Assembly: GCA_017454905.1 (NCBI GenBank)
Contig: JAFTCB010000007.1
Span: 62,001 to 126,000, forward strand
Source of the DNA: Bacteroidales bacterium
GTDB lineage: Bacteria; Bacteroidota; Bacteroidia; Bacteroidales; UBA932
Direction: 5' to 3'
Length of the DNA: 64,000 nucleotides
How positions within the stretch are numbered: position 1 is the first letter of the stretch; each line of letters begins with the position of its first letter. The notes below the pieces were generated by a model, which had not been told where the DNA came from, searched no databases, and was given only the letters and a program-made list of their open reading frames with translations. This document shows positions 8,703-28,390 of the stretch, piece after piece. A program made the translations under genes and the position numbers.

Positions 8703-8732
8703 GACAGTATCAACCACTAAATGATTCTTTAT

Positions 8733-11480: not shown

Positions 11481-12908
11481 ATGCGACAATGGACACGATT
11501 GATCATTGACGTGGATTATCATCCCTGCGATCCCGGCAACAGCACCTGGTATTGCGAGCGGACTGCTTTTTCGAAATCTGACCTGTGTGCCGGAAAAGTC
11601 CTGTCCTACGAGGATCCGGGCGGTCTTTTCGGGGGGATCCGTGTTGATTCCGTGTCGGAGGACGGTTTGGTGCTGAGCTATGGAACCAAGCTGTATTCCA
11701 TCAATATGAAGCATCCACACCTGCCCCTTGACAAGGGCGGTCGGGATTACACGGAGTTCGAGCTCAACCTGTTCCTGGAGAGTGCCATTGTCGTAGAGGA
11801 TACGCCGGCTTTCTACCGACAGTTCTATACTCGGGATCAAGTGGCCAGGCTGCGCGGCAGCGATATCCGGGCGCTGGAAGCGTCCGATGCGCCCGCTGCC
11901 CGCTTTGCACTGGGTCGCTGGCATTACTTACTTATGCCCGAAGAGGACTCCTGCGCACAGGCGGAAAAACTGTTCCGTGAAGCGGCGGAGGCGGGCGTCG
12001 CGGATGCCTTCTCCGCCTTGTCCATGATGTACGTCTATGGCGACACGCGTGAAGACCGCCTTGACCTGGACGAAATGGTTCGCTGGCGCGATGAGGCACT
12101 TGCCCGGGGAAGTGAACTCGCGGCGTACCGCTACGCCCGGAACCGTATCGGCGGTGACCTCCTGGCTCCGAAAGAACCGGACGTTGTCCGGGACGAGGTG
12201 GAAAAACGGCTTGCCACGGAGACCGATGTCTGGCCGGAATGGTACGCCGTCCTCGGTGATGCCTATGCGGCGCTGGACAAGCCTGAGAAAGCGCGGGAAG
12301 TCTATCTGGCCGGCGTGGAGCATGGGAGCCTCCGCTGCTATCCGGAGCTGGCTATGATGGCCCGGGAGCGGGAGGATGACAAGGAATACCGCTCCTGGAT
12401 GGAGAAGGGTATGGCGGCTGGCTGCGGCTGGTGTTTCATCTTGGACGGCGATTTGGATGAGGAACGCTTCCAAGCGGGAGATTCAAGATTTAAGAACCTG
12501 GTGTCCAGACAGTTCCAGGAGCGCTTCGAACAGGGGCTTCGCCGGGGCGAAGGCTTGTGTGCCTATTACCTGGGATTCCATTCCTTTACGGGAACGCTTG
12601 GATTTACCATAGACGAAGAGGATGCCTTCCGCTATCTGCGAAAAGGTGTGGCCTTAGGTGATTGCTACTCCTGCTCGTTGCTGGCGGACATCCTGGAGGA
12701 CCGGGCTGAGACGCCGGCGGCGAAGAAAGAGGTCGCCAGGCTGCGGCTCAAGGCCGTCCGTTACGGGAAGGATGACGATCGGGAACAGCTGGCGCAGGAT
12801 TACCGGGACGGCCTGCTGGACGAATACAGGGATGAAATCGAAGAATACTGGCTGCCTGATGACGATGATGTGGACGAAGATGACGGTCGTTGGGACGCTT
12901 ATGCATAA
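11481..12908 (+). CDS. Sel1-like repeat protein, first gene of the signalling cassette
   Basis: A 475-residue soluble protein without signal peptide. Residues 1-130 form an unrecognised domain with RLIIDVDYHPCDPGNSTWYC and SYEDPGGLFGGI. From about 135 on it is helical with Sel1/TPR-like units (for example EKLFREAAEAGVADAFSALS, KAREVYLAGVEHGS, AFRYLRKGVALGDCYSCSLL), a scaffold type often used for protein-protein contacts. The last 20 residues are very acidic and end in DDGRWDAYA, a tail also kept in the decayed copy at 8270. Start ATG at 11481. It is 27 nt from the TerB gene ATG. Biochemical role unknown; a docking or adaptor role is inferred from the repeats. Confidence 0.75.
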   Translation: MRQWTRLIIDVDYHPCDPGNSTWYCERTAFSKSDLCAGKVLSYEDPGGLFGGIRVDSVSEDGLVLSYGTKLYSINMKHPHLPLDKGGRDYTEFELNLFLESAIVVEDTPAFYRQFYTRDQVARLRGSDIRALEASDAPAARFALGRWHYLLMPEEDSCAQAEKLFREAAEAGVADAFSALSMMYVYGDTREDRLDLDEMVRWRDEALARGSELAAYRYARNRIGGDLLAPKEPDVVRDEVEKRLATETDVWPEWYAVLGDAYAALDKPEKAREVYLAGVEHGSLRCYPELAMMAREREDDKEYRSWMEKGMAAGCGWCFILDGDLDEERFQAGDSRFKNLVSRQFQERFEQGLRRGEGLCAYYLGFHSFTGTLGFTIDEEDAFRYLRKGVALGDCYSCSLLADILEDRAETPAAKKEVARLRLKAVRYGKDDDREQLAQDYRDGLLDEYRDEIEEYWLPDDDDVDEDDGRWDAYA

Positions 12909-12935
12909 TGTTTTCAATTATTGATCTATCCAATT

Positions 12936-13712
12936 ATGACTGTTACTATTAGAACCCTTGCTGCTATTTGGCGAATTACCAAGTATCTCATGCATGCCGA
13001 CGGATCGGTGACGGACGACGAGATCAAGCCGGTCTATGATTTCTTCAAGACCTTTGGTGAGATGAATGATGAGATTTTCCTCCAAATCATGCGTGAAGCT
13101 GAAGATCTGTCGAACGAGGAAACCATTCGCCTCGTTGGCGCGTTGGATGAGGCTGCCAAACAGCAAATTTCCGACCTCTTTGCCAGCATCGTGCTTGCGG
13201 ACGGTGAGGTTCACGAAAAGGAACGTGAACTGTACCAAACAATTAACGAGGCATGCGGCCTGCCTGATCCCCAGTCTGATGAAGAAGAAGCAACGGATGA
13301 TGACGCGATCGAACCTGCCTTCTTCATCGTGAAGGACAATGGACATGTCGAACTGCGTCAGAGCGAAAACGAAGATTGGAACACGCTTGGGGCTGAACTT
13401 GCATCCTGGGTGGGTACGAGGCGTGTGGAAGTGGTCCGCTTCACAGAGCCCCTCAATGCAATCACGGAGAAACTGGGTCTCGTGAACCATCATTTGATCT
13501 TCATGATCGGGGTGGGCGGCAACAGGGATGCCGGTGATAATGCGCCGGCCACCATCCTGTACGGTGGCGGTATTCCGCTCTACGGCGACATTATTATTGC
13601 GCTCGAGTCCAACGATGATTACGAGATTGAAGGATTCCGCTTCAAGAACCTGGCCACCCATGCGATTCACTTTGTGAATCTGGCGGTGGATGAACTCCTT
13701 ATCTATGATTAG
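12936..13712 (+). CDS. Single-TerB-domain protein (paralogue of the gene at 8733)
   Basis: The 258-residue protein has one N-terminal TerB-like domain (residues about 1-110: MHADGSVTDDEI and VLADGEVHEKERELYQ) and the same middle alpha/beta domain as the gene at 8733 (RVEVVRFTEPLNAITEKLGL, APATILYGGGIPLYGDIII), but it lacks the second TerB domain. The frame opens at a TTG at 12921; the ATG at 12936 (MTVTIRTLA) is preferred by comparison with the paralogue. By eye this gene is richer in A and T than its neighbours. The stop is 3 nt from the next ATG. Role unknown; TerB suggests a metal or stress-linked regulatory part. Confidence 0.75.
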   Translation: MTVTIRTLAAIWRITKYLMHADGSVTDDEIKPVYDFFKTFGEMNDEIFLQIMREAEDLSNEETIRLVGALDEAAKQQISDLFASIVLADGEVHEKERELYQTINEACGLPDPQSDEEEATDDDAIEPAFFIVKDNGHVELRQSENEDWNTLGAELASWVGTRRVEVVRFTEPLNAITEKLGLVNHHLIFMIGVGGNRDAGDNAPATILYGGGIPLYGDIIIALESNDDYEIEGFRFKNLATHAIHFVNLAVDELLIYD

Positions 13713-13715
13713 CGC

Positions 13716-14297
13716 ATGGATGCAAGGGTTGCTGCCATCATAGCCGCTGTGGACGAGATGCGCCGCAACGGCGAAGATCAGAAGATCCACAAGAACCTGC
13801 CCCTGGCGGAAAAGGTCCTTTCCAGTCTGGAAACGCTGGACGATCCGGAGGAAGGCCCGCTTGGAAAGGCCTTGGCTTGCCAGGCCGCCGTGGACCTGCT
13901 CCCGGAATATGACGTTCCACGCCTGGTGCTGAAGATGTTGCGCCGAGAACTGGCATGGCTGGAAGAATCCGATGAGGAGAGCGAGAGCCTGACCGTGAAG
14001 GATGTCCAGGCACACATCGCGCGGCTCGAGGATTACATTGATGTCGACCAGGTGACGACAGAGGAATTCTGCAGCAAATACGGCCGTCACCTGAAATTCG
14101 ATCCCGTGGAACGGACGCAGAAATGGGAGGAGATCTACCCTGAGGTGGAAGAAGAGTGCGACCGTCGCCTGGAAGGCGTCCCCCGCGGGATGGGCTTCTG
14201 CTTTGGCTATTGGGCGGCCCGGCACGACATCCTGCTCCGGTATGGAATCGATTGGAAATCCCCGCACATGATGAATCCGCGGGTGATGTTTGACTGA
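13716..14297 (+). CDS. Conserved-looking protein of unknown function in the cassette
   Basis: A 193-residue acidic, mainly helical protein that I do not recognise. Residues 1-110 are predicted helices rich in Leu, Glu and Asp; the C-terminal third is less charged and carries a distinctive RGMGFCFGYWAARHDILL then YGIDWKSPHMMNPRVMFD, which looks like a conserved signature. No signal peptide, membrane segment or zinc cluster. It lies 3 nt after the TerB gene and its stop is one base from the zinc-ribbon ATG. It has no counterpart in the decayed copy, where the zinc-ribbon stub follows the TerB gene directly, so it was either gained here or lost there. Confidence 0.65.
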   Translation: MDARVAAIIAAVDEMRRNGEDQKIHKNLPLAEKVLSSLETLDDPEEGPLGKALACQAAVDLLPEYDVPRLVLKMLRRELAWLEESDEESESLTVKDVQAHIARLEDYIDVDQVTTEEFCSKYGRHLKFDPVERTQKWEEIYPEVEEECDRRLEGVPRGMGFCFGYWAARHDILLRYGIDWKSPHMMNPRVMFD

Positions 14298-14298
14298 T

Positions 14299-15132
14299 AT
14301 GGGAGAGAAAACCAGAATTCGCGAACGTGTCGCGACGCAAACGGCGGTCGAGACCGAGACCCGGGAAAACGAATCCACCGGAAGGTGCCCGCATTGCGGT
14401 GCCGACGTAGGTCCGGATTATGAAATCTGCCCCGTGTGCGGGTGGAAGATGGTGGATTACTGCACCTTCTGCGGGGCGCCGATGCTCCCCGACGATGTGG
14501 ACTGTCCCGAATGCGGCATGCCGGCAGACGGTGTGCTTTGTCCTACTTGCAACATCCTCAATTTCAGGTGCTTCTGTCGACAGTGCGGACAGCCGCTCTC
14601 CCGCGCGGCCCGGCATGCTGTGGAGAAGGCCCGGCAGGATCCGAAGGTGAAGGAGTCGGCGCGGCTGTTGACGCGCATCGCCGAACTGGAAGCGGAACTG
14701 GCGGGCGACCTGCCGGGAAATGAGGGAGCGGATGAGCCCGCTGAACCCACGGAAGGGGAGTTGCGACTGCGTGAATTGATGTCCCACATGGGCTTCTCGT
14801 TCACCGAACAGCCTAAAGCGACCCGGCGAAGCATGGGACGCAGCCGGGAGGCCGTGATGGAAGAGTACCAGCGGGCGGTCGAAGAAGCGAATCAAGTGCT
14901 GGAGAGCATGCTTCCTCCTGCCGGCTCCACGCCGCAGGAGCAGCGCAATTACTACACGGCCCGCAAGGTGGCCGTGACGGAATTGATGGAGGTGACGGGC
15001 CTGGTGGGCTGGATTTGCAACTGGTGCCATTGTTTCCATGAGCATCCCTCTCAGTGCTACCGGCCGTGGCTGGGCGGTACTTGGCAATACGGCACGACCC
15101 AGAAAGTAGTTACCACGTACAAAAAAGTATAA
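14299..15132 (+). CDS. Multi-zinc-ribbon protein
   Basis: The 277-residue protein has a cluster of CxxC knuckles between residues about 34 and 105: CPHCG, CPVCG, CTFCG, CPECG, CPTC and CRQCG, enough for three zinc ribbons of the double-ribbon type. A charged helical segment with coiled-coil character follows (KVKESARLLTRIAELEAELA), and a C-terminal domain has CNWCHCFHEHPSQC and a YRPWLGGTWQYGTT tail. Such ribbons usually mediate protein or nucleic-acid contacts. The start is ATG 14299 rather than the TTG at 14290. It sits one base after the preceding gene and 3 nt before the kinase. A truncated paralogue lies at 9947. Confidence 0.75.
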   Translation: MGEKTRIRERVATQTAVETETRENESTGRCPHCGADVGPDYEICPVCGWKMVDYCTFCGAPMLPDDVDCPECGMPADGVLCPTCNILNFRCFCRQCGQPLSRAARHAVEKARQDPKVKESARLLTRIAELEAELAGDLPGNEGADEPAEPTEGELRLRELMSHMGFSFTEQPKATRRSMGRSREAVMEEYQRAVEEANQVLESMLPPAGSTPQEQRNYYTARKVAVTELMEVTGLVGWICNWCHCFHEHPSQCYRPWLGGTWQYGTTQKVVTTYKKV

Positions 15133-15135
15133 AAC

Positions 15136-18100
15136 ATGGCTGAAAAAGACAACAACTTGACGCCTCAGAAAACGGCTGTAGCCCCTCAGAAAAATGCGAC
15201 CGCTCCTCAAAAGACCGCTGTCTTTTCCCAAAAAACAGCGGTGTTTCCCCAAAAGACTGCGGCCGCTCCGCAGAAAACGGCTGCGGCGCCGCATATGCCC
15301 GGCATGGCCGCGCCCTCCGGTGGCGGCACTTATGCTCCCGGAGAAACAGTAAAAGTCGGCGGCAACAGCTATACCGTTGAGAAACTGATGGGCAGCGGGT
15401 CGGAAGGCGACATTTATATCGTTTCCGCTCACAAGCGGAAATATGCGCTCAAGTTGTGTCACCCCGGGTTCCATACCAATGTCAAGGTCATGCCCGCCAT
15501 GCAGAAGCTGAACGGGCAGGGCTACATCTCGGATATCGTGGATTACGGCGATGATTTTGAACTTCTGGAATACATCCCTGGCGGTAATGCCGCGTCAGCG
15601 GGGTTGAAGGGAAATGCCGAAGCCATCCTGATCATTGCGGCCAAGACCGCCATGTCCCTGTCCATGATCCATCAGGCCGGCGTCCTCCACAAGGATGTGA
15701 AACCGGCCAATATCCTTATCAAGGACAGCCGGATTTGGGACTGCGTCCTTTGTGATTTCGGCATCGCCGATAAGATCGATGTGGACGGCAGTTGTGTGAC
15801 CAAGCAGTTCCGAACCCCCATCTATGCGGCCCCGGAAGTCTATACGACGACCGTCACGCTCCCGGATGGGAACTATACGGAGTTGACCCCCAAGGCAGAT
15901 TTCTTCTCACTGGGCATGACCATCCTGTCCCTGTGGATGGGTGAGGAAGTGTTCGAGGCAAACGAGCCGGCCATGGCGATTGACAAGGTGAAAGGGCGGA
16001 TTGCCGTCCCGGCGGACATGCCGGATCCGCTCGCCAGGATCTGCCGGGGCCTGCTCATCAAGAACCCCGTCAAGCGCTGGGACTACGATGAGATCCTGCG
16101 AACCGTTAAGGGCGAGGACGTCCCGGTGGAAGAAGATGAGATCATCGAGGACCTCGGCATTACCTTCAATGCCTCCCGGCATCTGATGGCCAATACGCCG
16201 GAGGAACTGGCTCAATGTATGGTCGAGGACCAGGACCTGGCCGTCAAGTACCTCTATCGCGGACAGGTCGAGAAGTGGCTCAAACCCTATCCGGAACTGG
16301 CCCTCGAGATCCAGGAGATTGTGGAAACACGTTATCCCCAGGATCAGCAGATGGGCCTGCATGCCGCCGTCTATCTGTTGGATCCGACCTGGCCGCTCCG
16401 GCTGGTCGGCATCAACCGCGAAACAGGGGAAGAAGAGGAGCTTTCTGCCGTTACGATTAAGGATATCAGCAATTTCTGTCATCGGGCCATTCCGGATTCA
16501 GTTACGGCCAGTACGTTGTCTTCCGATGTTTTCGTGGAGTGGGTTCGTGCCCGCAACAAGACGCTGGCTGCGTCTTTGCCGGCCGAGAACGGGCAGACAT
16601 CCTGCTATATGCTGCGTGTGCAGACGATAGATCCGCTCTCGGATATCAACCTGCGAAACGACCCCGACGAGCCCGACTATGCGATGACTCAGGAAGGAAT
16701 CGGGCGTTTCCTGAACAAGGTGTACACCATTTTCTGGTCCCACTGCGAAGGCGATCCATCCAGGATCGACGGGGTGTGGAATCGCCCGGAACACGCTCCG
16801 ATGAACCGTATGATTCCCACAGCGGTCGTGGCGAACACTGCGGCTTGTTTCCTCTTTCCGGATCAGTACCACTACTTGACGGATTTTATGGCCACCAAGG
16901 GCCAGCGCTTCCAGCAGCAACGCTCCTGGGTCATGTACTGCACCGATTGGAACAGCGACGATAATCGCCGGAAAGCCGGGCCGAAAGACGCGGACTTCCA
17001 AGCTCAGGCCAGCTGGATGAAGGTGATCAAGGGTTTCGGCGTCACGCCGGAATACGAATTGGTGGATGTCGCCGAGAAGGTAACGACGCGGGATGAGCTC
17101 TTTTCCCACAAAAAGAAGGAGCTGGCCCATGAATTCTACCATCGGGGCCTGGCCGGTTGGCTCGCCGTGCAGCATCAGGAGAATCCCGATGCGGACCTCT
17201 CGGAAGAGTACGCCTACGAAGATCTGCTCCTGGATTATTTGGATGACATTGAGGAAATTGACGACAAGGCAATGCCCGTGGAGCGCTTCTACAAGGCGCA
17301 GGGCGAAGCGGACGATATTCTTTCCTCCGGCAAGGCCCGCATTCGCGGCCTCAGCGTCCGGAGTATGTTGCAGCATGTGTTGACCATCGTCTTTGCGATC
17401 CTGCCCGCCATCGTTCTGCTGGGCGTGCTGATCTTCTCCATTATTGACAACCCGGTCCTGGACACCTCCGGCATGCGGCTGGAACGCTTCTTCTGGCCGG
17501 TCGGCCTGATTGTGGCCGCCATCCTGTTCTTCGCTTCTGACAGCGAAGGATGCCTGATTCCATTAATCGGCGGAGCCATCGGTGCGGTCCTCGTCTTCCT
17601 GCTGGTCAAGTTCCTGGGTGCTTATATCCTGTATCTCTACGCTTTGATCGTGCTGGGTGCCCTGGTCTTCTTCAGCATCAAGACCATCTTCTTCCACAGC
17701 CAGTTCGCCCGGGACGCCCGGCGCTTCAACAAGCCGGGATTCGAAGAAAGGGTCCTGGAGCCGCTTTACTACGCCTTCAGTGACGAGACGAGATTCGACT
17801 CCTCCCTCAATGGTACGTTCGACGAATTCAAGATGGGCGCCTGGAAGAGCGATCTGAAGACGCGTCGCATCCACATGCTGATTTTCATCGGCGTCACCTG
17901 GGCGCTGGTTGCTTTCAGTCTGCTAATCCCCAAGAGCGAGCGCTTTGAGCGCTTCTCCGCGCCGTTCATTGAGAAGATCATGCCGGCGCGGCAGGCGACT
18001 GCGCAGCCGGACCTGCTGGAATTCGAGAGCCTGGAACCGGGCGCCCGGGGAGAAGAGGTGCTGGCTCTGCAGCGCTATCTCAAGGAGGCCGGCTATCTGC

Positions 18101-18270
18101 GGGGGACCGTGGACGGCGATTATGGCCGCGGAACGCAGGCGGCCGTGTCCGCGTTCCAGAAAGCCAATGGCCTGGAGGCGACGGGGCATGCTGACAAGGA
18201 AACGATACAAACTATCAACCGGCTGGCCGCCGAGGCTGCCCGGGAGGCTGAACAACAAAACAAGGAATAG
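15136..18270 (+). CDS. Membrane Ser/Thr protein kinase with peptidoglycan-binding C-terminus
   Basis: 1044 residues. Residues 9-52 are Thr-containing PQKTA-type repeats. The kinase domain (about 78-320) has a Gly loop GSGSEG (86-91), the ATP-site Lys106 in YALKL, a catalytic loop LHKDVKPANIL (Asp187; HKD instead of the usual HRD), DFG at 207-209 and APE at 232-234, so it should be active. A long cytoplasmic linker follows (320-740, no family recognised). About five transmembrane helices lie at 747-932, putting the C-terminus outside the cytoplasm. Residues about 966-1028 are a PG_binding_1 domain (GARGEEVLALQRYLKEAGYL, VDGDYGRGTQAAVSAFQ). It could sense the cell wall and signal inwards; that is inference. 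It is 3 nt before and 2 nt after its neighbours. Confidence 0.88.
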   Translation: MAEKDNNLTPQKTAVAPQKNATAPQKTAVFSQKTAVFPQKTAAAPQKTAAAPHMPGMAAPSGGGTYAPGETVKVGGNSYTVEKLMGSGSEGDIYIVSAHKRKYALKLCHPGFHTNVKVMPAMQKLNGQGYISDIVDYGDDFELLEYIPGGNAASAGLKGNAEAILIIAAKTAMSLSMIHQAGVLHKDVKPANILIKDSRIWDCVLCDFGIADKIDVDGSCVTKQFRTPIYAAPEVYTTTVTLPDGNYTELTPKADFFSLGMTILSLWMGEEVFEANEPAMAIDKVKGRIAVPADMPDPLARICRGLLIKNPVKRWDYDEILRTVKGEDVPVEEDEIIEDLGITFNASRHLMANTPEELAQCMVEDQDLAVKYLYRGQVEKWLKPYPELALEIQEIVETRYPQDQQMGLHAAVYLLDPTWPLRLVGINRETGEEEELSAVTIKDISNFCHRAIPDSVTASTLSSDVFVEWVRARNKTLAASLPAENGQTSCYMLRVQTIDPLSDINLRNDPDEPDYAMTQEGIGRFLNKVYTIFWSHCEGDPSRIDGVWNRPEHAPMNRMIPTAVVANTAACFLFPDQYHYLTDFMATKGQRFQQQRSWVMYCTDWNSDDNRRKAGPKDADFQAQASWMKVIKGFGVTPEYELVDVAEKVTTRDELFSHKKKELAHEFYHRGLAGWLAVQHQENPDADLSEEYAYEDLLLDYLDDIEEIDDKAMPVERFYKAQGEADDILSSGKARIRGLSVRSMLQHVLTIVFAILPAIVLLGVLIFSIIDNPVLDTSGMRLERFFWPVGLIVAAILFFASDSEGCLIPLIGGAIGAVLVFLLVKFLGAYILYLYALIVLGALVFFSIKTIFFHSQFARDARRFNKPGFEERVLEPLYYAFSDETRFDSSLNGTFDEFKMGAWKSDLKTRRIHMLIFIGVTWALVAFSLLIPKSERFERFSAPFIEKIMPARQATAQPDLLEFESLEPGARGEEVLALQRYLKEAGYLRGTVDGDYGRGTQAAVSAFQKANGLEATGHADKETIQTINRLAAEAAREAEQQNKE
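15160..15291 (+). repeat. Degenerate tandem repeat coding for PQKTA units in the kinase
   Basis: Six to seven in-frame units of about 21-24 bases encode PQKTAV, PQKNAT, PQKTAV, SQKTAV, PQKTAA and PQKTAA. The units differ at third positions, so this is an old protein repeat rather than a recent slippage product. Five Thr residues in the same context could be autophosphorylation sites for the FHA protein of the same operon (inference). Confidence 0.8.
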
Positions 18271-18272
18271 TC

Positions 18273-21200
18273 ATGGTCTGTAAACAATGCGGGAAAGATA
18301 ACCGTCCGGAAGCGAAATACTGTCGCTTCTGCGGCGAGCGGTTGGAGGTAAAAGCGTCCTCCCAGAAGGGCCTGATCGGCAAGGACAACATCGTCCCTTT
18401 GCTGGAGGAACTCGACCGGAAACTCATCGTGGCCCAGCGCTTTGCCAGCAATGGCACGAAGATCGGCATGGACTGCCTCGTCCTGGGAGACAGTGGAACC
18501 GGCAAGACTTTCGTCGCGGACATCATCACCCGCAAGATGATGGATGCCGGAATCGTGAAGGTGCCGCCGAAGAAGGTTGACGCCGCTGACTGGGGCGATT
18601 TCTGCAAGGAGTTTGACAAGAATGTCGCGGCGCTCAAGGATGGTATCCTGCTGATTACCAACGCACAGAAGCTCCTGCCTACGGACAAGGCTTCGAATGT
18701 AAATCAGTTGGACAAGCTCTTCACGCGCATGCGTGGAACGGAAGGCGCTCCAATAGTGGTCCTGTGCGGCCTGCTGAACGAGATGAGCAAATTCCTGGAG
18801 AATAACAAGGATGTTGCACGCCTTTTCGAGCTGGAGTTCAACCTGACGGCCTTCGGCACGCCGGAGCTGACGGAGCTCACTTTGTCTATCCTTCAGGAAA
18901 CATATAAATTGGACGCCTCGGAGGGGCTTCCTGACATCCTTGCGAGCCATTTCCAGTGGTTTATGCGTCAGCCGGATCTGAGTCATCTCAACGGCCACCT
19001 GGCCGAGAAGGTCGCGGAGAACCTCTCCGTCAAGGCAGCCCTGCGCGGCAGGAATACCGTGACGGAAGAAGATGTCCCTGCCGGTGAGCGTTTTACGCCC
19101 AAGTCAGAAGAGGAAATCCTGGCTGAACTGAACAACTACATCGGCCTGCAAAGCGTCAAGGATAAGATTCTCGAAATTGTCCGGAATGTGAAGACCCGCA
19201 AGAAAAATGGTGTGAAGGCCAATAGCCTGCTCACGGACCACTATCTCTTCACCGGCAATCCGGGGACCGGCAAGACCACTTTCGCCCGCAAGCTCGGCGA
19301 AGTGCTCGGCACGATCGGCGCCCTGCCCACGGGACAGTTCGTGGAAGTGTCCGCCAAGGATTTCATCGGGCAGGTGGTCGGGGACACGGAGGCGAACGTG
19401 AAGCGTTATGTCAACAAGGCCATCGGCGGCGTGCTTTTCATCGATGAGGCCTATGCACTCACCCAGGGTACCTCGGCCGGCGACGGCGGCAGTTTCGGCA
19501 TGGACGCCATCAATACGCTGCTTACCCTGCTGGAGAACCGGCGTGGCGAATTCGTTTGCATCATGGCGGGTTATACCAAGGAGATGAACGAGTTCGTGCG
19601 CAAGAATCCCGGCATCCCGTCCCGCTGCAACGTGACCATCGAATTCCCGGACTACAACGCTCGCGAGCTGGAGCAGGTCTTCCGTATGCAGCTCCTCCGA
19701 AACGATGAGAAAGTGGAATATACCTTGGACGCTACGGCGGAAGAGATGCTCCCCAAGGTCTTCGACCGCATGTATGCCAGACGCATTGACACCTTCGGTA
19801 ACGCCCGCGCGGTGCGAAACCTGTTCTCTGAGGCCGTAGGACGCCACAATGCCCGCGGCTGCGGAGACAATATTCTCAGCTATTCCGATATCGTGGGCGA
19901 GGAAATGACCGGCGAGATCTCCGTTGAGGACATCATGAAGGAGCTGGACGGCCTGGTGGGTATGAAGTCCGTCAAGGACGCGATCCGCCGCATCGCCAAC
20001 GAAATGGCCGTCCAGAAACGACTCATTGAGCTGGGCGAAAGCGCAGAGGGCCTCACCAAGTTCAATTTCGTGCTGACCGGTAATCCCGGCACCGGCAAGA
20101 CCACGGTGGCTCGCATGATGGGCAAGATCTTTAAGGCGATGGGGATTCTCTCTACCGACCGGGTCACTGAAAAGACCCCCAAGTCCATCCTTTCCCAGTA
20201 CCAGAACCAGAGTGCGCAGAACATGAACGACGCCATCACGGAAGCCATGGGCGGCGTGCTCTTCCTGGATGAAGCCTACGACATTGATCCGAAGGATGCT
20301 GCCGGCCAGAGTGTCAGCAGGGAGGGCAATGAAGCCATCCAGGCCTTGCTGACCCGCATGGAGAACGAGGCTGGCAAGTTTGTTGTGGTTTGTGCCGGTT
20401 ACCCCAAGGAGATGGAAGACTTCATGAATTCAAACCCCGGCCTGCGAAGCCGTTTCTCGCATTTCATCCACATTGACGACTACTCGGCCGACGAACTGCT
20501 GGAAATCTTCGAGCGCGCCGCCAAGGGCAAGAGTTACAACTTTACGCTTGCCAACGATGAAGTGCGCGCACGCGTGCTCCGCATGTTCCAGAACATGGTG
20601 GCCATGAAGGACGCGAAATTCGGCAATGCCCGGGAGGCCATGAAAAAGCTGGCGGAGACCAAAACGAATATCTACAACCGTATCAAGGCGCTCCCGCAGG
20701 ACCAGTGGACGCCGGAGAACATCCATTCGGTGTTCCTGGAGGATGTCCCTTACGAGGAGCCCAAGAAGATCTCCGTGGACGAGTGCCTGGAGGAACTCAA
20801 CAAACTTATCGGCCTGGAGGGCGTGAAGTCCTCGCTCACCAAGCTGGCGCACACCATCAACAACGAGATCGAGAGCGCCCGGCTGGAGAACCGCCGTCCG
20901 GAGATCCCGCTGGGACATTATCTGTTCCTAGGCAATCCCGGCACCGGCAAAACCACCGTGGCGCATCTGATGGGCAAGATCCTGTATTCCATGGGCGCCC
21001 TGCCGAGCCCTTATGTCAAGGAAGTGGGGAAGGCCGACCTGGTCGGCCGTTTCGTCGGCGACACGGAGGCAATCACTTCGCATGTGATCGACTCGGCCAT
21101 GGGCGGCATTCTGTTCATCGACGAGGCCTACCAACTGATGACCGACCAGTTCGGGCAGGCGGCGCTGGAGACGCTCCTGACCCGCTTGGAGAACGACCGG

Positions 21201-21578: not shown

Positions 21579-22132
21579 TTCAGTGTCCCGAATGCAGAAA
21601 CATGATTCCCGACGACAGCGCCTTTTGCGACCAGTGCGGGAAAGAATTGAAATGGTGCCCGACCTGCAAGCGGCCCAAGCGCGGCACGGAATGTCCGGTC
21701 TGCGGCAGCGACTTGATTCCCGGGCGGAAATACCTGGCCGGGGGAGCCACCGTGGAGCAGAAGCCTGCTGCGGCGTCGTCCACCATCCAGGAGAAGCCGG
21801 CCCCGGAGACGCCCGCCGGCCCCAGGTCCCAGGCGACGGCGGTCCAGGCATCCGGCGGACCGACCCGTCTGGTCGGAAACGGCTGGTCGCTCCCGCTCCA
21901 GCCCGGCGGCTTCGGCCGGCGGGGCGGCATCTGGCCGGAACTGGCCAGCTGCCAGTATGTATCCGGCAGCCACGGAGAAATCAGCCGCGGCTCGGATGGC
22001 TGGATCCTTGTCGACATCGGCTCTACCAACGGCACTTTCGTGAACGGTCAGCGCCTGGAATCCGGCCGAGGATTTCCTCTGAAGAAAGGAGACCGTGTCC
22101 GCATTGCAACCCTTGATTTCACTGTAGAATGA
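21575..22132 (+). CDS. Zinc-ribbon/FHA domain protein
   Basis: A 185-residue protein with two N-terminal zinc ribbons (CPEC, CDQCG, CPTC, CPVCG; residues 4-48), a Pro/Ala-rich linker (about 55-90) and a C-terminal FHA domain (about 98-185) with the conserved GRRGGIWPE, SGSHGEISR and DIGSTNGTFVNGQRL strands, including the Ser and Asn that contact phosphothreonine. FHA domains read pThr, so it probably docks on the kinase encoded upstream or its targets. Both the start and the stop overlap neighbouring genes by 4 nt (ATGA), implying coupled translation with the AAA+ and PP2C genes. Confidence 0.88.
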   Translation: MIQCPECRNMIPDDSAFCDQCGKELKWCPTCKRPKRGTECPVCGSDLIPGRKYLAGGATVEQKPAAASSTIQEKPAPETPAGPRSQATAVQASGGPTRLVGNGWSLPLQPGGFGRRGGIWPELASCQYVSGSHGEISRGSDGWILVDIGSTNGTFVNGQRLESGRGFPLKKGDRVRIATLDFTVE

Positions 22133-22863: not shown

Positions 22864-22866
22864 ACG

Positions 22867-25800
22867 ATGAGTACATCAAGTCCCTCTGGCTGGCGCCGAT
22901 ACAACATTTTCATTTCGTCCACGTTCAAGGACATGGACTTCGAGCGGGACATCATCAAGTTCCGCATCATCCCGGCCCTGAACCGTCGTTTCCGCGACCG
23001 GCGGGTCGAGCTCCAGGCCATCGATCTCCGCCTGGGCGTGAACACCTCGGACATGACCGAGGCGGAGAGCGAGCGCAAGGTGCTTTCCGTGTGCACCTCC
23101 TGTATCGACAGCGCCCGGCCTTTCTTCATCGGACTGATCGGCAAACGCTACGGCTGGATCCCGCCCATGGAGCGCTGGCAGGAGTTTACCGCCAAACTCT
23201 CGGACGAGGAGCAGGCGCTGCTGGCCGGTACGGCCGGGTGCAGCGTGACGGAGATGGAAATCGTCTACGGCGCCCTCTCGCAAGAGAGTTTCGATACATC
23301 CCACGTCCTGTTCTACCTGCGGGATGACAGTTCCTACGAGGGACTGCCGGAAGATTTGCTGCCGGCCTTCTGCGACAGCGATCCGGACCTCCTCCGGAAG
23401 CTGGATGCGCTCAAGGACAAGGTCCGCCGGCTCTTCGGCGCGATGGGCGGCGAGGACGACCGCTGCACGCCGTATAGACTGGCTTGGCGCGACGGCCACT
23501 TCGAGGGGGAAGACTTTGAACGGGTTGTGACGGAGCAGCTGGCCCTGCAGATAGAGCTGGAGACCGCCCGGGAGGAGGAAGCCGGTGCTGCAAGCTGGTG
23601 GGTGCAGGAGAAGGAGCTGGAAGAATCCACGTTGTTGCGCCTGCTGCCGGGTTCGGTGGAAACCTCCCTGGCTCAGGATCCCGACGAGAAAAAGAGCGAA
23701 GAAGAGGATTCCTCCGACCGGGTGGCCTGGTATGTACCGGGCATAGGCGCCAGTACGCACATGGCACAGGAATATGCCAGCTGGGACGAAGATGCGGATG
23801 TGGTGCGGCTGCTGGCCGTGTTCGGCCTGTCGGAATACAGCAATGCCATGCGTCCGGTACTGGCTCGCTGGATCCATGAGCTCGCGCTGGTCACGGGTCG
23901 GGAGGAGATCCCGGACGACGACCTGTTGCTGGGCAAATTGCCTGAGACGGAGTTAAATGCCCTGTTCGCTTCGCTCGTACAGGAAGTTCGCGACGCAGAC
24001 AAATATATCTACATTTTCCTCGACGACGTCGAGGCCCTCGAGACAACGGCAGCCAAGGACCTGTACATGCCCTGGCTTGACCGGGTGGCGGATCAGGTGA
24101 ACATCCTGGTGAACCTGCAGGATGAGAGCGAGGCCCGCACGAAATTCCTCTCGGCGCACGCATACCCGGCCCGGTTGATGGTGCCCGGCATCGTGGATTC
24201 GGAGGATGCGGAGGCGCTGATTTCCCGCTATGAGAAGACGTATTTCCTGGAATTGCCCGCAGCCGTCCGGAAGGCCATGCTGGATGCGGCGGAAGGTGAT
24301 CATGATTGCCTGTTGCCGATCAAGGTACATAGTGTCTTCCGTCTTTTCGAATCCCTCACCCAGGAGGATTTCAAGCGGATCCGCGCCAGCGACGGCAGCC
24401 AGATCGACGCCATCAACGGCTATCTCGAAGAGATCTGGGGTGAGATGCCGGATACCCCTTACGACCTGATGACCCATATGGTCAACAATATTCTCTACAA
24501 CCTCGGGCTGGGGGAGCAGATGCGCCAGGCTTTCTGGTACATTGCTGCGGCCCCGGGAGGTCTCCGGGAGAGCGATATCGCCCATTTTGCCGGGGAGGAC
24601 TGGGATGTGGTCCAGTTCTACCGGGCGATGAATTTCCTGCAGGATTTCTTCTACGAGGACCGGACCCGCCATCTGTGGCGCGCAAAATACATCACGCAGG
24701 CTGAAGACGGCCTGCAGAAGCGCCAGAAGGAGATTTCGTCCTATCTGCTGACGCTGGATCCCGCAGATTCCCTGCGGGAGACGATGGGCCTGTATTACGC
24801 GCTCAAGAGCGGCGATCCCGGGCATTTCCCGTCCTATCTGGTCGAAGGAGACTATATTCACGGCCAACAGATAAAAGACTTGCTGCGTTTCTACAGTCCC
24901 CAGGTCCGCCAGTTGGCACGGGAGGGCTTTTTCGACAGCCCGGATTTTGAACAATACTGTCGGGCGCTGACGCCTTCCGTCAGGTTGCAATTGTTCTTGG
25001 ATATCTTGACCGGGATGTCAGACCTGCAGGAAGAGTTGCATCTGCTGACTAAACGGATGGGAGAGTGGCTGGAAGATGTCCGTTTGGATGACCTGTCGGT
25101 CATGGATGCGTTTACCTATGCGTCCATCCTGGCTATGCCCCAGGATTCAATACCCCATCTGGAACTGGCGCTGAAGGCGGCGCGACGCTGCGCAGAAGAG
25201 GGTTTTGAAACCGCGCAGCAGTTGGTTTCCGGCGTGTCCGCCCCCCTGTTGGCCCTGTACAAGAAGAAAGGACAGCAGTCCAAGGCGAGAATTCTCCGCA
25301 AGGAGATGGACGAAGCGGAAGGTGCTCAGACCAGCCTGAAAGCGCGGTATATGGCACTGATTCGCATTATCCACGAAGCCAGGAGCCGCCGCGGGCTGTT
25401 CCGCAGAAAGGACGCGGATCTTTCGCTGCTCGACAGTTTCTTTGATAAATACTATGCTATTTGTCAGGATTTAGACACGGGCAAGGAGAGTTTCGAAGCT
25501 TTCTTCATGTCCACCCAACTGATGATGATGGCGTTGGATGTGCTGCAGGAGGAGAAGGCATATGATCGTTTTCTGGAAGAGTGGGTCCGCTTCGAACCCT
25601 GGATGGAGTCGCTTTATGAGATGGACAGTTTCTTCAGCTACAAGCCTTGTGTGGAACGCTTCTTAGATTACAACTCTGCTTTATTTTTGGTTCTCTCCAA
25701 TATGAAACCGTCCGGAAACCGGAAAGACCTGTTGGCGCAAATGCTTGATTTCACTTCGCAGGCGTGTTTCAGCGCTGTCGACCGACTGAAGGAACTGGAT

Positions 25801-25929
25801 TCAGACCATCCGCTGATCGCGATGTTCCGGGAGAAAAAGGCCCGCTTGCCGGAGACAGAAATGGACGTGCCGGTTGAGGAGATTGACAAGAAGATTGTAG
25901 AACTGTATAAAGAATATTGCGAACAATGA
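22867..25929 (+). CDS. DUF4062 protein with STAND-like region lacking the P-loop lysine
   Basis: 1020 residues. Residues about 10-120 are a DUF4062 domain (YNIFISSTFKDMDFERDII, FIGLIGKRYGWIP), a module at the front of many NTPase-containing sensor proteins. The next part resembles a STAND-type NTPase but where the Walker A should be it reads WYVPGIGASTHMAQ, without the Lys; a Walker B-like YIYIFLDDVEAL is present. A winged-helix-like and then an all-helical C-terminal half (about 550-1020) follows, with no repeat family I can name. STAND proteins are typical sensors in bacterial immunity and signalling; the missing Lys suggests a nucleotide-independent or binding-only role. The stop overlaps the RyR gene start by ATGA. 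Confidence 0.78.
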   Translation: MSTSSPSGWRRYNIFISSTFKDMDFERDIIKFRIIPALNRRFRDRRVELQAIDLRLGVNTSDMTEAESERKVLSVCTSCIDSARPFFIGLIGKRYGWIPPMERWQEFTAKLSDEEQALLAGTAGCSVTEMEIVYGALSQESFDTSHVLFYLRDDSSYEGLPEDLLPAFCDSDPDLLRKLDALKDKVRRLFGAMGGEDDRCTPYRLAWRDGHFEGEDFERVVTEQLALQIELETAREEEAGAASWWVQEKELEESTLLRLLPGSVETSLAQDPDEKKSEEEDSSDRVAWYVPGIGASTHMAQEYASWDEDADVVRLLAVFGLSEYSNAMRPVLARWIHELALVTGREEIPDDDLLLGKLPETELNALFASLVQEVRDADKYIYIFLDDVEALETTAAKDLYMPWLDRVADQVNILVNLQDESEARTKFLSAHAYPARLMVPGIVDSEDAEALISRYEKTYFLELPAAVRKAMLDAAEGDHDCLLPIKVHSVFRLFESLTQEDFKRIRASDGSQIDAINGYLEEIWGEMPDTPYDLMTHMVNNILYNLGLGEQMRQAFWYIAAAPGGLRESDIAHFAGEDWDVVQFYRAMNFLQDFFYEDRTRHLWRAKYITQAEDGLQKRQKEISSYLLTLDPADSLRETMGLYYALKSGDPGHFPSYLVEGDYIHGQQIKDLLRFYSPQVRQLAREGFFDSPDFEQYCRALTPSVRLQLFLDILTGMSDLQEELHLLTKRMGEWLEDVRLDDLSVMDAFTYASILAMPQDSIPHLELALKAARRCAEEGFETAQQLVSGVSAPLLALYKKKGQQSKARILRKEMDEAEGAQTSLKARYMALIRIIHEARSRRGLFRRKDADLSLLDSFFDKYYAICQDLDTGKESFEAFFMSTQLMMMALDVLQEEKAYDRFLEEWVRFEPWMESLYEMDSFFSYKPCVERFLDYNSALFLVLSNMKPSGNRKDLLAQMLDFTSQACFSAVDRLKELDSDHPLIAMFREKKARLPETEMDVPVEEIDKKIVELYKEYCEQ

Positions 25930-27764
25930 TACGCCGTAGAATGGATCGTATCCTCGCCCAAGGCGAGGGAAAACAGCTGGCCTGGCTGGTGGGCATCGTG
26001 CTGGTGCTGTATGGCATCTTTTGCCTGGTCGGCCGGATCTGGGGCCTGGATTGGACGGATATCCTGATGTTGTACCTGGACCCGGGCAATTTCCCGATCG
26101 ACCACCAGGCCAATGATTTCTTCAGCCTGATCGTCACGTTGAGCGGCATCCTGATCCTGTCCGCGCTGATGATTTCGGTGTTCTCCAACGTGTTCTCCAA
26201 CATCGCCGAGGCCTACCGTAAGGGCGAGCGGCGCTACCGCTTCAGCGGCCATGTGCTGATCCTGGGCGGCGGCCATCCGCTGGTTGACATGCTGAAAGCC
26301 CTGCAGAAACATCCTGATTTCGTGGACAAGGACATTGTCGTCATGACTTCCTCTGACGTGGAGGCTCTCCGGGCCACGATGGAGACGGCCCTTGACGATG
26401 CTGCCTTCTGCCGCCGGATCACCTGGTACCGGGGCAAGCGGGACAACCGGGAAGACCTCCTCGGCGCCCGGGCGTTCCTGGCACGCTGCATTTATCTGAT
26501 CGGGGAGGACGATGAAGCGGCGCATGACTCGCTGAATGTCGGGGCCATGGACCTTCTCCGGGACATCTGCGGCGGGGAGGGCTCGGCCATCCCGTGCTAC
26601 ATTACCCTGGAGATGCGCTCCAGCCAGGATGTGTTCCAGTATCTTCCGAAGGAGGGAGATTCCCGCCTGCGCGTCGAGATCGTCAATACCAGTGATTACT
26701 TGGCTGAGCAGCTCCTCGTGGATACGCCTTTCCTGCCGGTTCCCGGGGCAGGGCAGCACCTGCACATCGTGATTGCGGGCAACGGCCGGACGGCCCGGTC
26801 GTTTGCCGCCGTGGCGGCGCAGGTCTGCCATTTCCCGGATTTCGCGCAGAGCGGGTGCAGGACGCTGATCTCATTTATAGACAGTGACATCCGAAAGGAG
26901 ATGGATGATTTCGTGGCGAACCGCCAGGGCCTGTTTGACCTCTCGCACTATGCCTATGTGTCCCCGGCAGGGCGCGAAGACCATGCGCCGAAGGAGGCCT
27001 TCGGCGATTTCCTGGACCTCGAATGGGAGTTCATTGACAGCCATCTCTCCTCGCCTTTTGTCCGGGAACAACTGGAGACCTGGGCCGCTGACCCGGCGCA
27101 GAAGCTCGTGGTGGCAATCTGCCCCGAGGACGCTGCGACGGCGCTATCCGCCGCCCTGCACCTGCCGAAGGCGGTTCTCAAGGCGGATATCCCCGTTGCG
27201 GTCTATCAGAAAGACCATGCGGAATTGCTGGATAAGGCCGTCTCCACGGGCATGTTCGGGCAGGTCCGCTGCTATGGCGAGGCGATGCCCGAGACCGATG
27301 CGCTGCTCCTGCGCCGCTCCGAGCGCGGCCAGCGGGTCAACTACCTCTATGATTTGGAATATGGCAACCCGCCCGCCGCCTCGGCTGCCGAGGCCTGGGC
27401 GGGCCTTTCCTTCGCCCACCAGCTTTCCAGCATCGCGAGTGCCAATTCCATCCCCATGAAGCTACGCGCCTTCGGGCTGGAGCCCACTCGGGCGTCAGTC
27501 GATGCGCTGGATGCCGAAGCGCTGGAGGCGCTCTCGGAAGTGGAGCATCGCCGCTGGATGACCACCGTGCTGCTGGCGGGCTATCGGGCGGCTCCCAAGT
27601 GCGAACGATCCGACCGTAGCCGCTTCAAAGAGTTGAAAAACAAGGAGTTCATCCATCTGGACATCGCGCCCTATGATGAACTCGCCCACGAAGCCGACAA
27701 GGATCGGCTGATCGTTCAGAATATTCCGTATATCATGAATGGAGAGGAGATTGTTCGCATATGA
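25926..27764 (+). CDS. Two-TM protein with two TrkA-N-like Rossmann domains and a RyR domain
   Basis: 612 residues. Two membrane helices (about 18-38 and 63-87) flank an external loop without a recognisable K+ filter. Two Rossmann-like domains follow, with nucleotide loops HVLILGGGHPL (about 105) and HIVIAGNGRTARS (about 280), as in TrkA-N/RCK channel regulators. The C-terminus (about 530-605) is a ryanodine-receptor (RyR) domain: LSEVEHRRWMTTVLLAGYR, then IPYIM. RyR with TrkA-N modules is known from bacterial proteins thought to sense a ligand. A role as a gated membrane effector is inference. ATG at 25926 overlaps the previous stop; a TTG three codons upstream is less likely. Confidence 0.82.
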   Translation: MIRRRMDRILAQGEGKQLAWLVGIVLVLYGIFCLVGRIWGLDWTDILMLYLDPGNFPIDHQANDFFSLIVTLSGILILSALMISVFSNVFSNIAEAYRKGERRYRFSGHVLILGGGHPLVDMLKALQKHPDFVDKDIVVMTSSDVEALRATMETALDDAAFCRRITWYRGKRDNREDLLGARAFLARCIYLIGEDDEAAHDSLNVGAMDLLRDICGGEGSAIPCYITLEMRSSQDVFQYLPKEGDSRLRVEIVNTSDYLAEQLLVDTPFLPVPGAGQHLHIVIAGNGRTARSFAAVAAQVCHFPDFAQSGCRTLISFIDSDIRKEMDDFVANRQGLFDLSHYAYVSPAGREDHAPKEAFGDFLDLEWEFIDSHLSSPFVREQLETWAADPAQKLVVAICPEDAATALSAALHLPKAVLKADIPVAVYQKDHAELLDKAVSTGMFGQVRCYGEAMPETDALLLRRSERGQRVNYLYDLEYGNPPAASAAEAWAGLSFAHQLSSIASANSIPMKLRAFGLEPTRASVDALDAEALEALSEVEHRRWMTTVLLAGYRAAPKCERSDRSRFKELKNKEFIHLDIAPYDELAHEADKDRLIVQNIPYIMNGEEIVRI

Positions 27765-28390
27765 TAAGTATCCAGACGCAACCCGCTGAGGAGAATCTCC
27801 TTGGCCAGAGCAAGTGGTGGGGCTTCCCGGACCTTCCGGAGGAGCTGGACTGGCCGTCTGTGCCGGTCAATGACGACGGGGACGTGTACGACGACCCGCT
27901 GACCTTCATCTGCCAGATCCGTTGCGAGGAGCTGGCGCCGTTCGACCCGGAAGGACTGCTGCCGCATACCGGCATGCTGTGGTTCTTCGCCTCGCTGGAT
28001 TATTTCCTCGGCAATCCGGACGCCGTCTGCCCGGGGATGGGGGAATGGGAGTACGCGTATTTCCGCGTGCTCTATTCGAACGACCTGGATTCGCTGCACG
28101 AGCACACGTTGCTTTACGACGACGGCACGCCCGCCGTCTTGCCGGCCGAGGCCATCCATTTCTCGCGCGTGACGCGCGATGAGGACAGCTATACGCGTTT
28201 GCTGGGGCAACCCTTCTTCGAGGAAGTGTCCGGCGAACTGCCCGGCCTGATCTCCCTGCTGCAGCTGGACGAAGACGACCGCTGGGGCCTGCGCTTCTTC
28301 GACAGCGGCATGCTCAATTTCATGATTTCACCCGAAGATCTCGCCGCCCGCCGCTTCGGCGCCGTGCGCACCTGGCTCCATTCCGCCTGA
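27761..28390 (+). CDS. DUF1963 (YwqG-like) protein, last gene of the cassette
   Basis: The 209-residue soluble protein has the DUF1963 pattern: SKWWGFPDLPEELDWPSVPV near the N-terminus, FICQIRCEELAPFDPEGLLP and TGMLWFFASLDYF, followed by a variable second half. The family (Bacillus YwqG and relatives) has no known activity but often occurs in toxin/immunity and polymorphic toxin settings. It overlaps the RyR gene by 4 nt (ATGA), so it belongs to the operon. Downstream the convergent hipT gene ends only 10 nt away; no terminator hairpin is visible between them. Confidence 0.8.
   Translation: MISIQTQPAEENLLGQSKWWGFPDLPEELDWPSVPVNDDGDVYDDPLTFICQIRCEELAPFDPEGLLPHTGMLWFFASLDYFLGNPDAVCPGMGEWEYAYFRVLYSNDLDSLHEHTLLYDDGTPAVLPAEAIHFSRVTRDEDSYTRLLGQPFFEEVSGELPGLISLLQLDEDDRWGLRFFDSGMLNFMISPEDLAARRFGAVRTWLHSA

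What the first reader, a model, noticed from the sequence alone, without database searches (positions are those of the whole stretch)
11481..28390. Eleven-gene kinase/phosphatase/FHA/AAA+/DUF4062/RyR cassette, probably an undescribed signalling or conflict system
Seen: eleven co-directional genes with gaps of at most 27 nt and five ATGA overlaps, one promoter at the front, and a complete phospho-Thr writer (kinase), eraser (PP2C) and reader (FHA). Known: TerB, PP2C and kinase genes co-occur in TerY-P type stress systems, and DUF4062/STAND, RyR-TrkA and DUF1963 domains recur in bacterial sensing and conflict loci. Not known to me: any system joining these with a four-module AAA+ protein and a Sel1-like scaffold. 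Inference: an envelope-sensing kinase sets the phosphorylation state of zinc-ribbon/FHA adaptors, which control the AAA+ machine and a membrane effector (RyR protein). No vWA (TerY) or TerD gene is present.
Basis: partly seen in the sequence, partly recalled or inferred. Interest (0 to 1): 0.88.

Follow-up and report, generated by a model that had tools for sequence, protein, structure and literature searches.

The report
Phospho-switch operon with NADase–channel pair
A bacterial gene cluster combines a conserved five-gene phosphorylation switch with an inserted pair of genes that look like an NAD-splitting enzyme and an ion channel with a ryanodine-receptor-type domain; similar enzyme and membrane-protein pairs occur elsewhere, so it may be a bacterial parallel of NAD-derived signalling to ion channels.

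Summary
The eleven genes are real but are two modules plus variable extras. (1) Genes 4–8 (zinc ribbon, kinase, four-module AAA+, zinc-ribbon/FHA, PP2C) are a conserved core: all five in the same order in 26 of 41 loci brought in by the AAA+ protein; four more are cut by contig ends, 11 show only an AAA+ match. The kinase N-terminus is Thr-rich in 32 of 32 kinases, often as repeats: a likely FHA docking site. (2) Genes 9–10 are a cassette. Gene 9 has a DUF4062 domain matching the human TEP1 TIR-like NADase and keeps the presumed catalytic Glu. Gene 10 resembles a CASTOR-type RCK channel (filter-like LDPGN) ending in a RyR domain with the four residues that hold ADPR in phage RyDEP (my mapping). 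RCK–RyR genes lie within 8 kb of TIR/DUF4062 genes in 8 of 12 genomes (0.14 expected), and beside them on Arcobacter, Butyrivibrio and Sinorhizobium plasmids; several of those relatives lack the CASTOR-like filter. Best reading: gene 9 splits NAD+ and an ADPR-type product gates gene 10. Enzyme activity, channel activity, ligand and control by the core are inferred. My searches found no described system of this make-up.

The parts
11481..12908 (+). gene 1: Sel1-like protein, variable periphery
   Evidence: Sel1 21 bits, below cut-off; 63% identical in L018, where genes 4-8 are 96-100%
12921..13712 (+). gene 2: TerB protein, variable periphery
   Evidence: PF05099 35.6 bits; mostly missing in L021
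13716..14297 (+). gene 3: no known family, variable periphery
   Evidence: no Pfam or NCBIfam match
14290..15132 (+). core gene 4: double zinc-ribbon protein
   Evidence: PF12773; first gene of the core
15136..18270 (+). core gene 5: Thr-repeat N-terminus, Ser/Thr kinase, membrane segments (seen by eye), C-terminal peptidoglycan-binding domain
   Evidence: PF00069 7.9e-25, PF01471 3.3e-19; Thr-rich N-terminus
18273..21578 (+). core gene 6: N-terminal CxxC pairs + four AAA+ modules (CbbX/SpoVK/EccA type)
   Evidence: PF00004, four stretches; invariant C3, C6, C17, C20; NCBIfam
21575..22132 (+). core gene 7: zinc ribbon + FHA
   Evidence: PF00498 1.4e-13, PF12773
22129..22863 (+). core gene 8: PP2C phosphatase
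   Evidence: PF13672 8.5e-13
22867..25929 (+). gene 9: DUF4062 TIR-like domain (presumed catalytic E131), middle with degenerate Walker A, allelic C-terminal third
   Evidence: PF13271; TEP1 structure 11gz E=8.3e-23; Glu invariant in 14 rows; Walker A; swap
25926..27764 (+). gene 10: two hydrophobic segments with LDPGN between them, RCK-like region, C-terminal RyR domain
   Evidence: BLASTP to a Castor_Poll_mid channel 7e-11 and to a TrkA_N-RyR protein 4e-18; RyR profile 36.9 bits
27761..28390 (+). gene 11: DUF1963 protein; directly follows PP2C in loci without genes 9-10
   Evidence: PF09234 6.4e-22; L023, L032, L180
10122..11363 (-). M48 peptidase-TerB protein, divergent neighbour kept beside the cluster in L018, L021 and L013
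24796..25995 (+). stretch encoding the C-terminal third of gene 9 (and the start of gene 10), replaced in the otherwise close L018
   Evidence: four 300-base blocks at 49-63% DNA identity; blocks before 90-100%, after 86-99%

Best explanation
The locus is a composite. Genes 4-8 are a conserved phospho-threonine switch: the membrane kinase phosphorylates its own Thr-rich N-terminus (inferred), the zinc-ribbon/FHA protein docks there (inferred), PP2C resets it (inferred), and the output goes to the four-module AAA+ machine (inferred). Genes 9-10 are an inserted conflict-type effector cassette: gene 9 is a receptor whose variable C-terminus senses a trigger (inferred from allele swapping) and whose TIR-like domain splits NAD+ (inferred from homology to experimentally shown NADases); an ADP-ribose-type product binds the RyR domain of gene 10 and opens a CASTOR-type cation channel (inferred), so that NAD+ loss and ion flux stop the cell or raise an alarm. 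Whether the core controls the cassette is open; the shared operon and kept linkage suggest it. Shown here: gene order, homologies, residue conservation, allele swap and neighbourhood recurrence only.
For: Core: all five genes in order in 26 of 41 loci; in four (L094, L095, L096, L099) of six fetched distant neighbourhoods, of which L094 appears to be the same contig as L041; and in four further relatives, one with the kinase moved to the end. Thr: 11.3% in the kinase N-terminus vs 4.8% in the rest, higher in 32 of 32 kinases and over 1.5-fold in 29; Ser 5.6 vs 5.7%; motifs PQKTA, DKTIR, DQTIR, STAIA by lineage. Cassette: PP2C is followed directly by DUF1963 without genes 9-10 in L023, L032 and L180. 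DUF4062 vs TEP1 8.3e-23; DUF4062 NADase activity: PMC13174449. Channel; predicted CASTOR filter AD265S(A)GNHA, D265N dead: PMC6697748. RyR: H541, W544, H577, D593 invariant in both alignments, by motif and spacing the counterparts (my mapping) of H75, W78, H100, D117 of RyDEP, reported as conserved in animal RyR R12 domains (PMC13232231). RCK-RyR genes with TIR or DUF4062 within 8 kb in 8 of 12 genomes, 0.14 expected, P about 6e-14 by a simple model; adjacent on Arcobacter, Butyrivibrio and S. meliloti plasmids.
Against: No biochemistry. Four of 12 RCK-RyR genomes have no nearby TIR/DUF4062 (G056, G060, G004, G039; G004's gene lies near a contig end). The profile that found seven of the 12 contained three TIR-linked members, and the 8-kb window was set after some loci had been seen. 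The filter-like motif was absent from three of nine N-termini scanned (L170, L171, L173) and not seen in the L104 alignment, so RCK-RyR partners of TIR genes need not be channels. The EHxxW motif was found in 17 of 22 RyR sequences scanned; RCK-RyR protein L172 and four small RyR proteins lack it. Published DUF4062 enzymes gave linear ADPR, whereas the RyR work concerns 2'/3'cADPR. Pfam RyR, TrkA_N and Castor_Poll_mid do not call gene 10. Gene 9's Walker A is degenerate. L021 keeps gene 9 with most of gene 10 missing. No structure model could be made. The neighbours scanned are mostly housekeeping genes, not a clear defence island.
Confidence: 0.5

Rival explanations
1. One integrated eleven-gene system: the kinase core directly controls gene 10 and the DUF4062 protein as its effectors.
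For: One operon-like run with overlaps; genes 4-11 in the same order in L018, L019 (with one gene inserted between 7 and 8) and L020; in L013 (G006) genes 9-11 still lie beside core genes after rearrangement.
Against: Gene 9 is full length in 4 of 26 complete core loci and gene 10 in 3, within the stretches fetched; related pairs occur without the core.
Confidence: 0.25
2. The core is a housekeeping envelope or stress regulator, and genes 9-11 are passengers in a permissive operon.
For: In Prevotella and the Ignavibacteriales MAG the core stands among genes for metabolism, transport and peptidases; other genes are inserted between FHA and PP2C in L019 and L022.
Against: Genes 9-11 stay beside core genes in L013 despite inversion. 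An AAA+ match is in only 7 of 61 relatives, one of them partial, which is unlike housekeeping, though many of these genomes are incomplete.
Confidence: 0.35
3. Gene 9 is a stand-alone abortive-infection NADase and gene 10 is its inhibitor or signal sink (RyR as sponge or glycosidase), not an effector.
For: Phage RyR proteins bind or cleave cADPR signals; small stand-alone RyR genes sit beside some RCK-RyR genes; several RCK-RyR relatives lack the filter-like motif.
Against: Gene 10 keeps two hydrophobic segments and a CASTOR-like filter motif, which a soluble sponge would not need; L021 keeps gene 9 with gene 10 mostly missing (a misassembly is possible).
Confidence: 0.2

Closest known systems
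Swarozyc / TEP1 DUF4062 TIR-like NADases (PMC13174449)
   Same: DUF4062 domain, presumed catalytic Glu, SVTEME motif shared with TEP1
   Different: gene 9 has a long middle with degenerate Walker A and an allelic C-terminus, and is paired with a membrane protein; the paper's main text holds none of the words RyR, TrkA, channel
Thoeris (TIR + nucleotide-gated effector)
   Same: works like it: NAD+-using enzyme beside a protein with a domain known to bind ADPR-family nucleotides
   Different: no PF13676 TIR found in G000, an 82%-complete genome; the partner would be an RCK-RyR protein, for which PADLOC 2023 gave no match
CASTOR/POLLUX RCK channels (PMC6697748)
   Same: two hydrophobic segments, D-x-G-N filter-like motif, RCK-like region
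   Different: Castor_Poll_mid not matched; a RyR domain is added
TerY-P kinase/PP2C systems (recalled)
   Same: kinase, PP2C, TerB nearby
   Different: no vWA or TerD match shown; FHA and four-module AAA+ instead
CbbX/SpoVK/EccA AAA+ proteins
   Same: AAA + AAA_lid_6 modules
   Different: four modules, in a kinase/FHA/PP2C operon

Membership tests
DUF4062 TIR-like NADases | DUF4062 domain over cut-off | tested here: met
   39.6 vs 24.7 bits
DUF4062 TIR-like NADases | conserved catalytic Glu | tested here: met
   E131 invariant in 14 aligned rows, which include close strains and one gene twice; aligns with a TEP1 Glu; that this is E1008 is my inference from chain length
DUF4062 TIR-like NADases | NAD+ hydrolysis | not testable with these tools
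   needs purified protein
Swarozyc | KpSwz-type auxiliary domain recognising the portal | not tested
   no KpSwz sequence or model compared
Thoeris | canonical TIR (ThsB) gene | tested here: not met
   0 PF13676 matches in G000 (genome 82% complete, other TIR families not searched genome-wide)
CASTOR/POLLUX channels | Castor_Poll_mid domain PF06241 | tested here: not met
   absent from gene 10 at E<=1
CASTOR/POLLUX channels | pore with acidic D-x-G-N filter | tested here: met
   LDPGN at 51-55; homology to channel L105 7e-11
RyR (R12) domain | match to Pfam PF02026 | tested here: not met
   no match at E<=1
RyR (R12) domain | homology and the four ligand residues | tested here: met
   profile made without gene 10 gives 36.9 bits; H541, W544, H577, D593 invariant, compared
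TerY-P | TerY vWA gene | tested here: not met
   no vWA match shown for the 20 proteins scanned: genes 1-11 and nine neighbours
type VII secretion EccA | secretion partners (EccC, WXG100) | tested here: inconclusive
   none shown among the 20 proteins scanned; not searched genome-wide

The most novel reading that the evidence does not exclude
A bacterial counterpart of the cADPR-ryanodine-receptor pathway: a TIR-type NADase makes an ADP-ribose messenger that opens a CASTOR-like calcium or cation channel through an R12-type RyR domain, here placed inside a phospho-threonine/AAA+ operon; the wider family (TIR or DUF4062 enzyme with an RCK-RyR membrane protein) reaches Bacteroidota, Campylobacterota, Bacillota and Pseudomonadota, not all of its members being channels. 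(Lowered from 0.35 to 0.3 on re-checking, because several TIR-linked relatives lack the filter-like motif.)
Probability: 0.3. Interest if true: 0.95.

Novelty: new variant of a known kind. Interest (0 to 1): 0.8.

Why it matters
Whether cADPR gates ryanodine receptors directly has long been argued in animals (recalled). A compact bacterial enzyme and membrane-protein pair whose RyR domain keeps the nucleotide-contacting residues would make this directly testable, and could explain why phages carry RyR proteins that remove such signals. It would add an ion channel to the possible effectors of TIR-type immunity. The five-gene core is a second phospho-signalling module of Bacteroidota that I did not find described.

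Tried and rejected
TerY-P membership: rejected, no vWA shown. A type VII secretion role from the EccA-like AAA+: not pursued for lack of partners among scanned genes; the NCBIfam cut-offs for SpoVK, EccA and CbbX are all passed, probably because four modules add up. One eleven-gene system: weakened. Mobile spread of gene 10: no plasmid match, no viral-contig relative, one partial phage-record match. An early impression that every RCK–RyR gene has a TIR neighbour was corrected (8 of 12).

Rows dropped before the count of 12. Of 26 genomes, five were kept (G276, G062, G073, G094, G149); 20 of one genus (g84) were dropped as another architecture, judged from one member (L109) and frame lengths, and their TIR neighbours were not examined; G156 was cut by a contig end. 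Of 21 genomes, seven were kept; G000, G006 and G020 were dropped (already found through DUF4062), eight with only N-terminal or RCK matches, and G010, G036, G005 (other architectures). G010 has a TIR 2.8 kb away on the other strand; with these three it would be 9 of 15. In G055 only the C-terminal part matched the profile; G039's gene is split in two frames; G149's RyR match is under the Pfam cut-off; in G094 the TIR frame has a stop. Methylobacterium and Acinetobacter RyR proteins were not counted.

The first paper search gave nothing useful. Burroughs et al. 2015 (recalled as relevant to RyR and TIR domains) is not held, so an earlier mention of this pairing cannot be excluded.
Full report
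What is there. The window is part of an uncultured genome of 2.4 Mb; the nearest named relatives are Bacteroidales MAGs, many from rumen. Eleven forward genes run from 11481 to 28390 with gaps of -13 to +12 nt. Domains were confirmed for most of them.

A conserved five-gene core. The one genome-contig scan with the AAA+ protein gave 41 loci. In 26 of 41 all of genes 4–8 lie in the same order; four (L028, L033, L036, L048) are cut by contig ends; 11 have only an AAA+ match, one of them on a 4-kb contig. The 26 include rumen Bacteroidales, Prevotella, Muribaculaceae and an Ignavibacteriales MAG. In 395 genomes of the phylum, 20 had an AAA+ match at 1e-100 and seven matched nearly end to end, one in two pieces, the window's own genome among them. 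Of the six other neighbourhoods, four have all five genes, one lacks a called FHA gene, and one starts at a contig end; one of the four (L094) appears to be the Ignavibacteriales contig L041 again. In 61 relatives the AAA+ protein is in seven, one partial; four newly fetched neighbourhoods have all five core genes, one with the kinase moved to the end, and G006 shows AAA+, FHA and PP2C up to the end of the fetched stretch. The core is old, ordered and patchy, with the caution that many of these genomes are incomplete.

How the core may work. The alignment of 11 kinases keeps the catalytic Lys, HxD and DFG motifs. The N-terminus is Thr-rich, often as short repeats with one Thr each: PQKTAVAPQKTA in the window lineage, STAIA in Muribaculaceae, two or three DQTIR/TLRVA-type motifs in Prevotella, DKTIRP or EKTIRL repeats in distant genomes; one (L095) has no clear repeat. 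N-terminal Thr is 11.3% against 4.8% in the rest, higher in 32 of 32 kinases and over 1.5-fold in 29; Ser is unchanged. The set holds close strains and one contig twice, and one kinase truncated by its contig was dropped. FHA domains read phospho-Thr (established knowledge), so a self-phosphorylated docking array for gene 7, erased by gene 8, is the simplest reading. That the AAA+ machine is the output is inference. The C-terminal peptidoglycan-binding domain of the window kinase has no counterpart in the Prevotella and Ignavibacteriales rows of the alignment.

Genes 9–10 are a cassette. PP2C is followed directly by DUF1963 without them in L023, L032 and L180. Among the 26 core loci gene 9 is full length in four and gene 10 in three, within the stretches fetched; L022 has a 20-residue piece of gene 9 at its edge. 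In L013 (G006) genes 9–11 lie beside inverted core genes. In L021 gene 9 stays while most of genes 10 and 2 is missing; a misassembly cannot be excluded. A DUF4062 match to gene 9 was in 4 of 61 relatives, but a close orthologue only in G006 besides the window's own genome.

Gene 9. Its DUF4062 domain matches the solved TIR-like domain of human TEP1 at 8.3e-23, sharing SVTEME. A 2026 preprint (PMC13174449; parts 1 and 2 of 6 read, plus passages) shows that DUF4062 proteins include active NADases and that bacterial ones (Swarozyc) give abortive infection; three other human DUF4062 proteins tested there were inactive. The second Glu of the motif, E131, is invariant in all 14 aligned rows (several are close strains and one gene appears twice); if the 220-residue TEP1 chain ends at residue 1113, it is TEP1 E1008 (inference). 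The middle has a degenerate Walker A in the window lineage, intact in L014. The C-terminal third is swapped: against L018, 300-base blocks of DNA are 90–100% identical up to 24.8 kb, 49–63% in the next four blocks, then 86–99%. Proteins are 98% identical in the TIR-like part and 40% in the C-terminal part, while L020 keeps the window allele at 91%. This is what a recognition domain under conflict looks like (inference).

Gene 10. Two hydrophobic segments flank LDPGN. Residues 2–195 match a channel that carries Castor_Poll_mid at 7e-11; residues 186–611 match a TrkA_N–RyR protein at 4e-18. In CASTOR the predicted filter is AD265S(A)GNHA and D265N abolishes current (PMC6697748, Discussion and passages). 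Pfam does not call RyR, but a profile from five other loci does, at 36.9 bits; the relative L104 matches animal ryanodine receptors in the PDB at up to 5.8e-11, and a RyR1 chimera at 1.8e-16. In phage RyDEP, H75, W78, H100 and D117 contact the ligand and are said to be conserved in animal RyR R12 domains (PMC13232231, passages and one section). By motif and spacing (my mapping) these are H541, W544, H577 and D593, invariant in both alignments made. Not every relative agrees: the EHxxW motif is in 17 of 22 RyR sequences scanned, and the filter-like motif in 6 of 9 N-termini scanned; L104 shows none in the alignment.

The pairing recurs. Adjacent or in one same-strand cluster: a ThsB-like TIR gene in G276, a TIR–WD40 gene in G062, the same type in G073, a TIR frame with a stop in G094, TIR genes in G149, G026, G057 and G055, and DUF4062 in G020 (found through DUF4062). 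On named plasmids: TrkA_N, RyR and DUF4062 genes in a row in Arcobacter; a TIR gene, then an RCK–RyR-like gene in Butyrivibrio; in S. meliloti a DUF4062 (23.6 bits, just under the 24.7 cut-off)–NB-ARC–TPR gene, then a TrkA_N–RyR gene whose RyR match is also under cut-off. In 12 Bacteroidota genomes picked by RyR or RCK–RyR searches, 8 have a TIR_2 or DUF4062 place within 8 kb, 0.14 expected (7 of 11 without the second member of one genus). Three cautions: the window size was set after some loci had been seen, one of the two profiles contained TIR-linked members, and the model treats positions as uniform. Four genomes have none; G056 and G060 have a small stand-alone RyR gene next door instead. 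PADLOC has no model matching genes 9 or 10 or the RCK–RyR proteins tested.

Reading. The strongest inference is an NADase whose ADPR-type product acts on an RCK–RyR membrane protein. Linear ADPR, cADPR isomers or simple NAD+ depletion remain open. Opposing facts: published DUF4062 enzymes gave linear ADPR, and channel activity of gene 10 rests on sequence alone.

Literature. The ten searches showed no described five-gene core and no DUF4062/TIR + RCK–RyR pair; I saw listings, and opened four papers. Kaur et al. 2020 (PMC7159879, passages) describe other kinase/PP2C/vWA associations. Subscription papers are mostly not held.

Changes on re-check. The swap is four blocks, not three; the PDB match to animal receptors is 5.8e-11; the missing filter motif and missing EHxxW in relatives are now told; the EccA test is now inconclusive; the novel-case probability went from 0.35 to 0.3.

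Noticed in passing
window 28401-29664 (-): HipA C-terminal and HipA N-terminal-type genes, a likely toxin-antitoxin locus, convergent with gene 11.
   Followed up: no
window about 8276-9947: Partial paralogous copy of genes 1-2, with gene-1-like pieces in two frames and an intact protein with two TerB stretches; absent at this place in L018 and L020 by DNA alignment.
   Followed up: partly
L169 9686+, L172 10872-, L174 3079-, L178 9099+: Small stand-alone RyR genes (about 87-105 aa) beside RCK-RyR or related genes; possible signal sinks.
   Followed up: partly
L109 7729-10401 (+): Protein with an AAA/STAND-type stretch ending in RyR; 20 genomes of the same genus (g84) in the phylum sample have RyR matches.
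   Followed up: no
L019 8399-9559; L022 8180-10395: Other genes (GNAT; two proteins of unknown function) inserted between FHA and PP2C of the core.
   Followed up: no
L014 6204-8444 (-): TIR_2 protein with hexapeptide repeats next to a DUF4062/RCK-RyR locus.
   Followed up: no
L013 7584-9494 (-): A second RyR-type membrane protein (19 bits, under the Pfam cut-off) divergent from gene 9 in G006.
   Followed up: no
L153: RyR protein on a Methylobacterium plasmid with a SIR2-family gene nearby.
   Followed up: no
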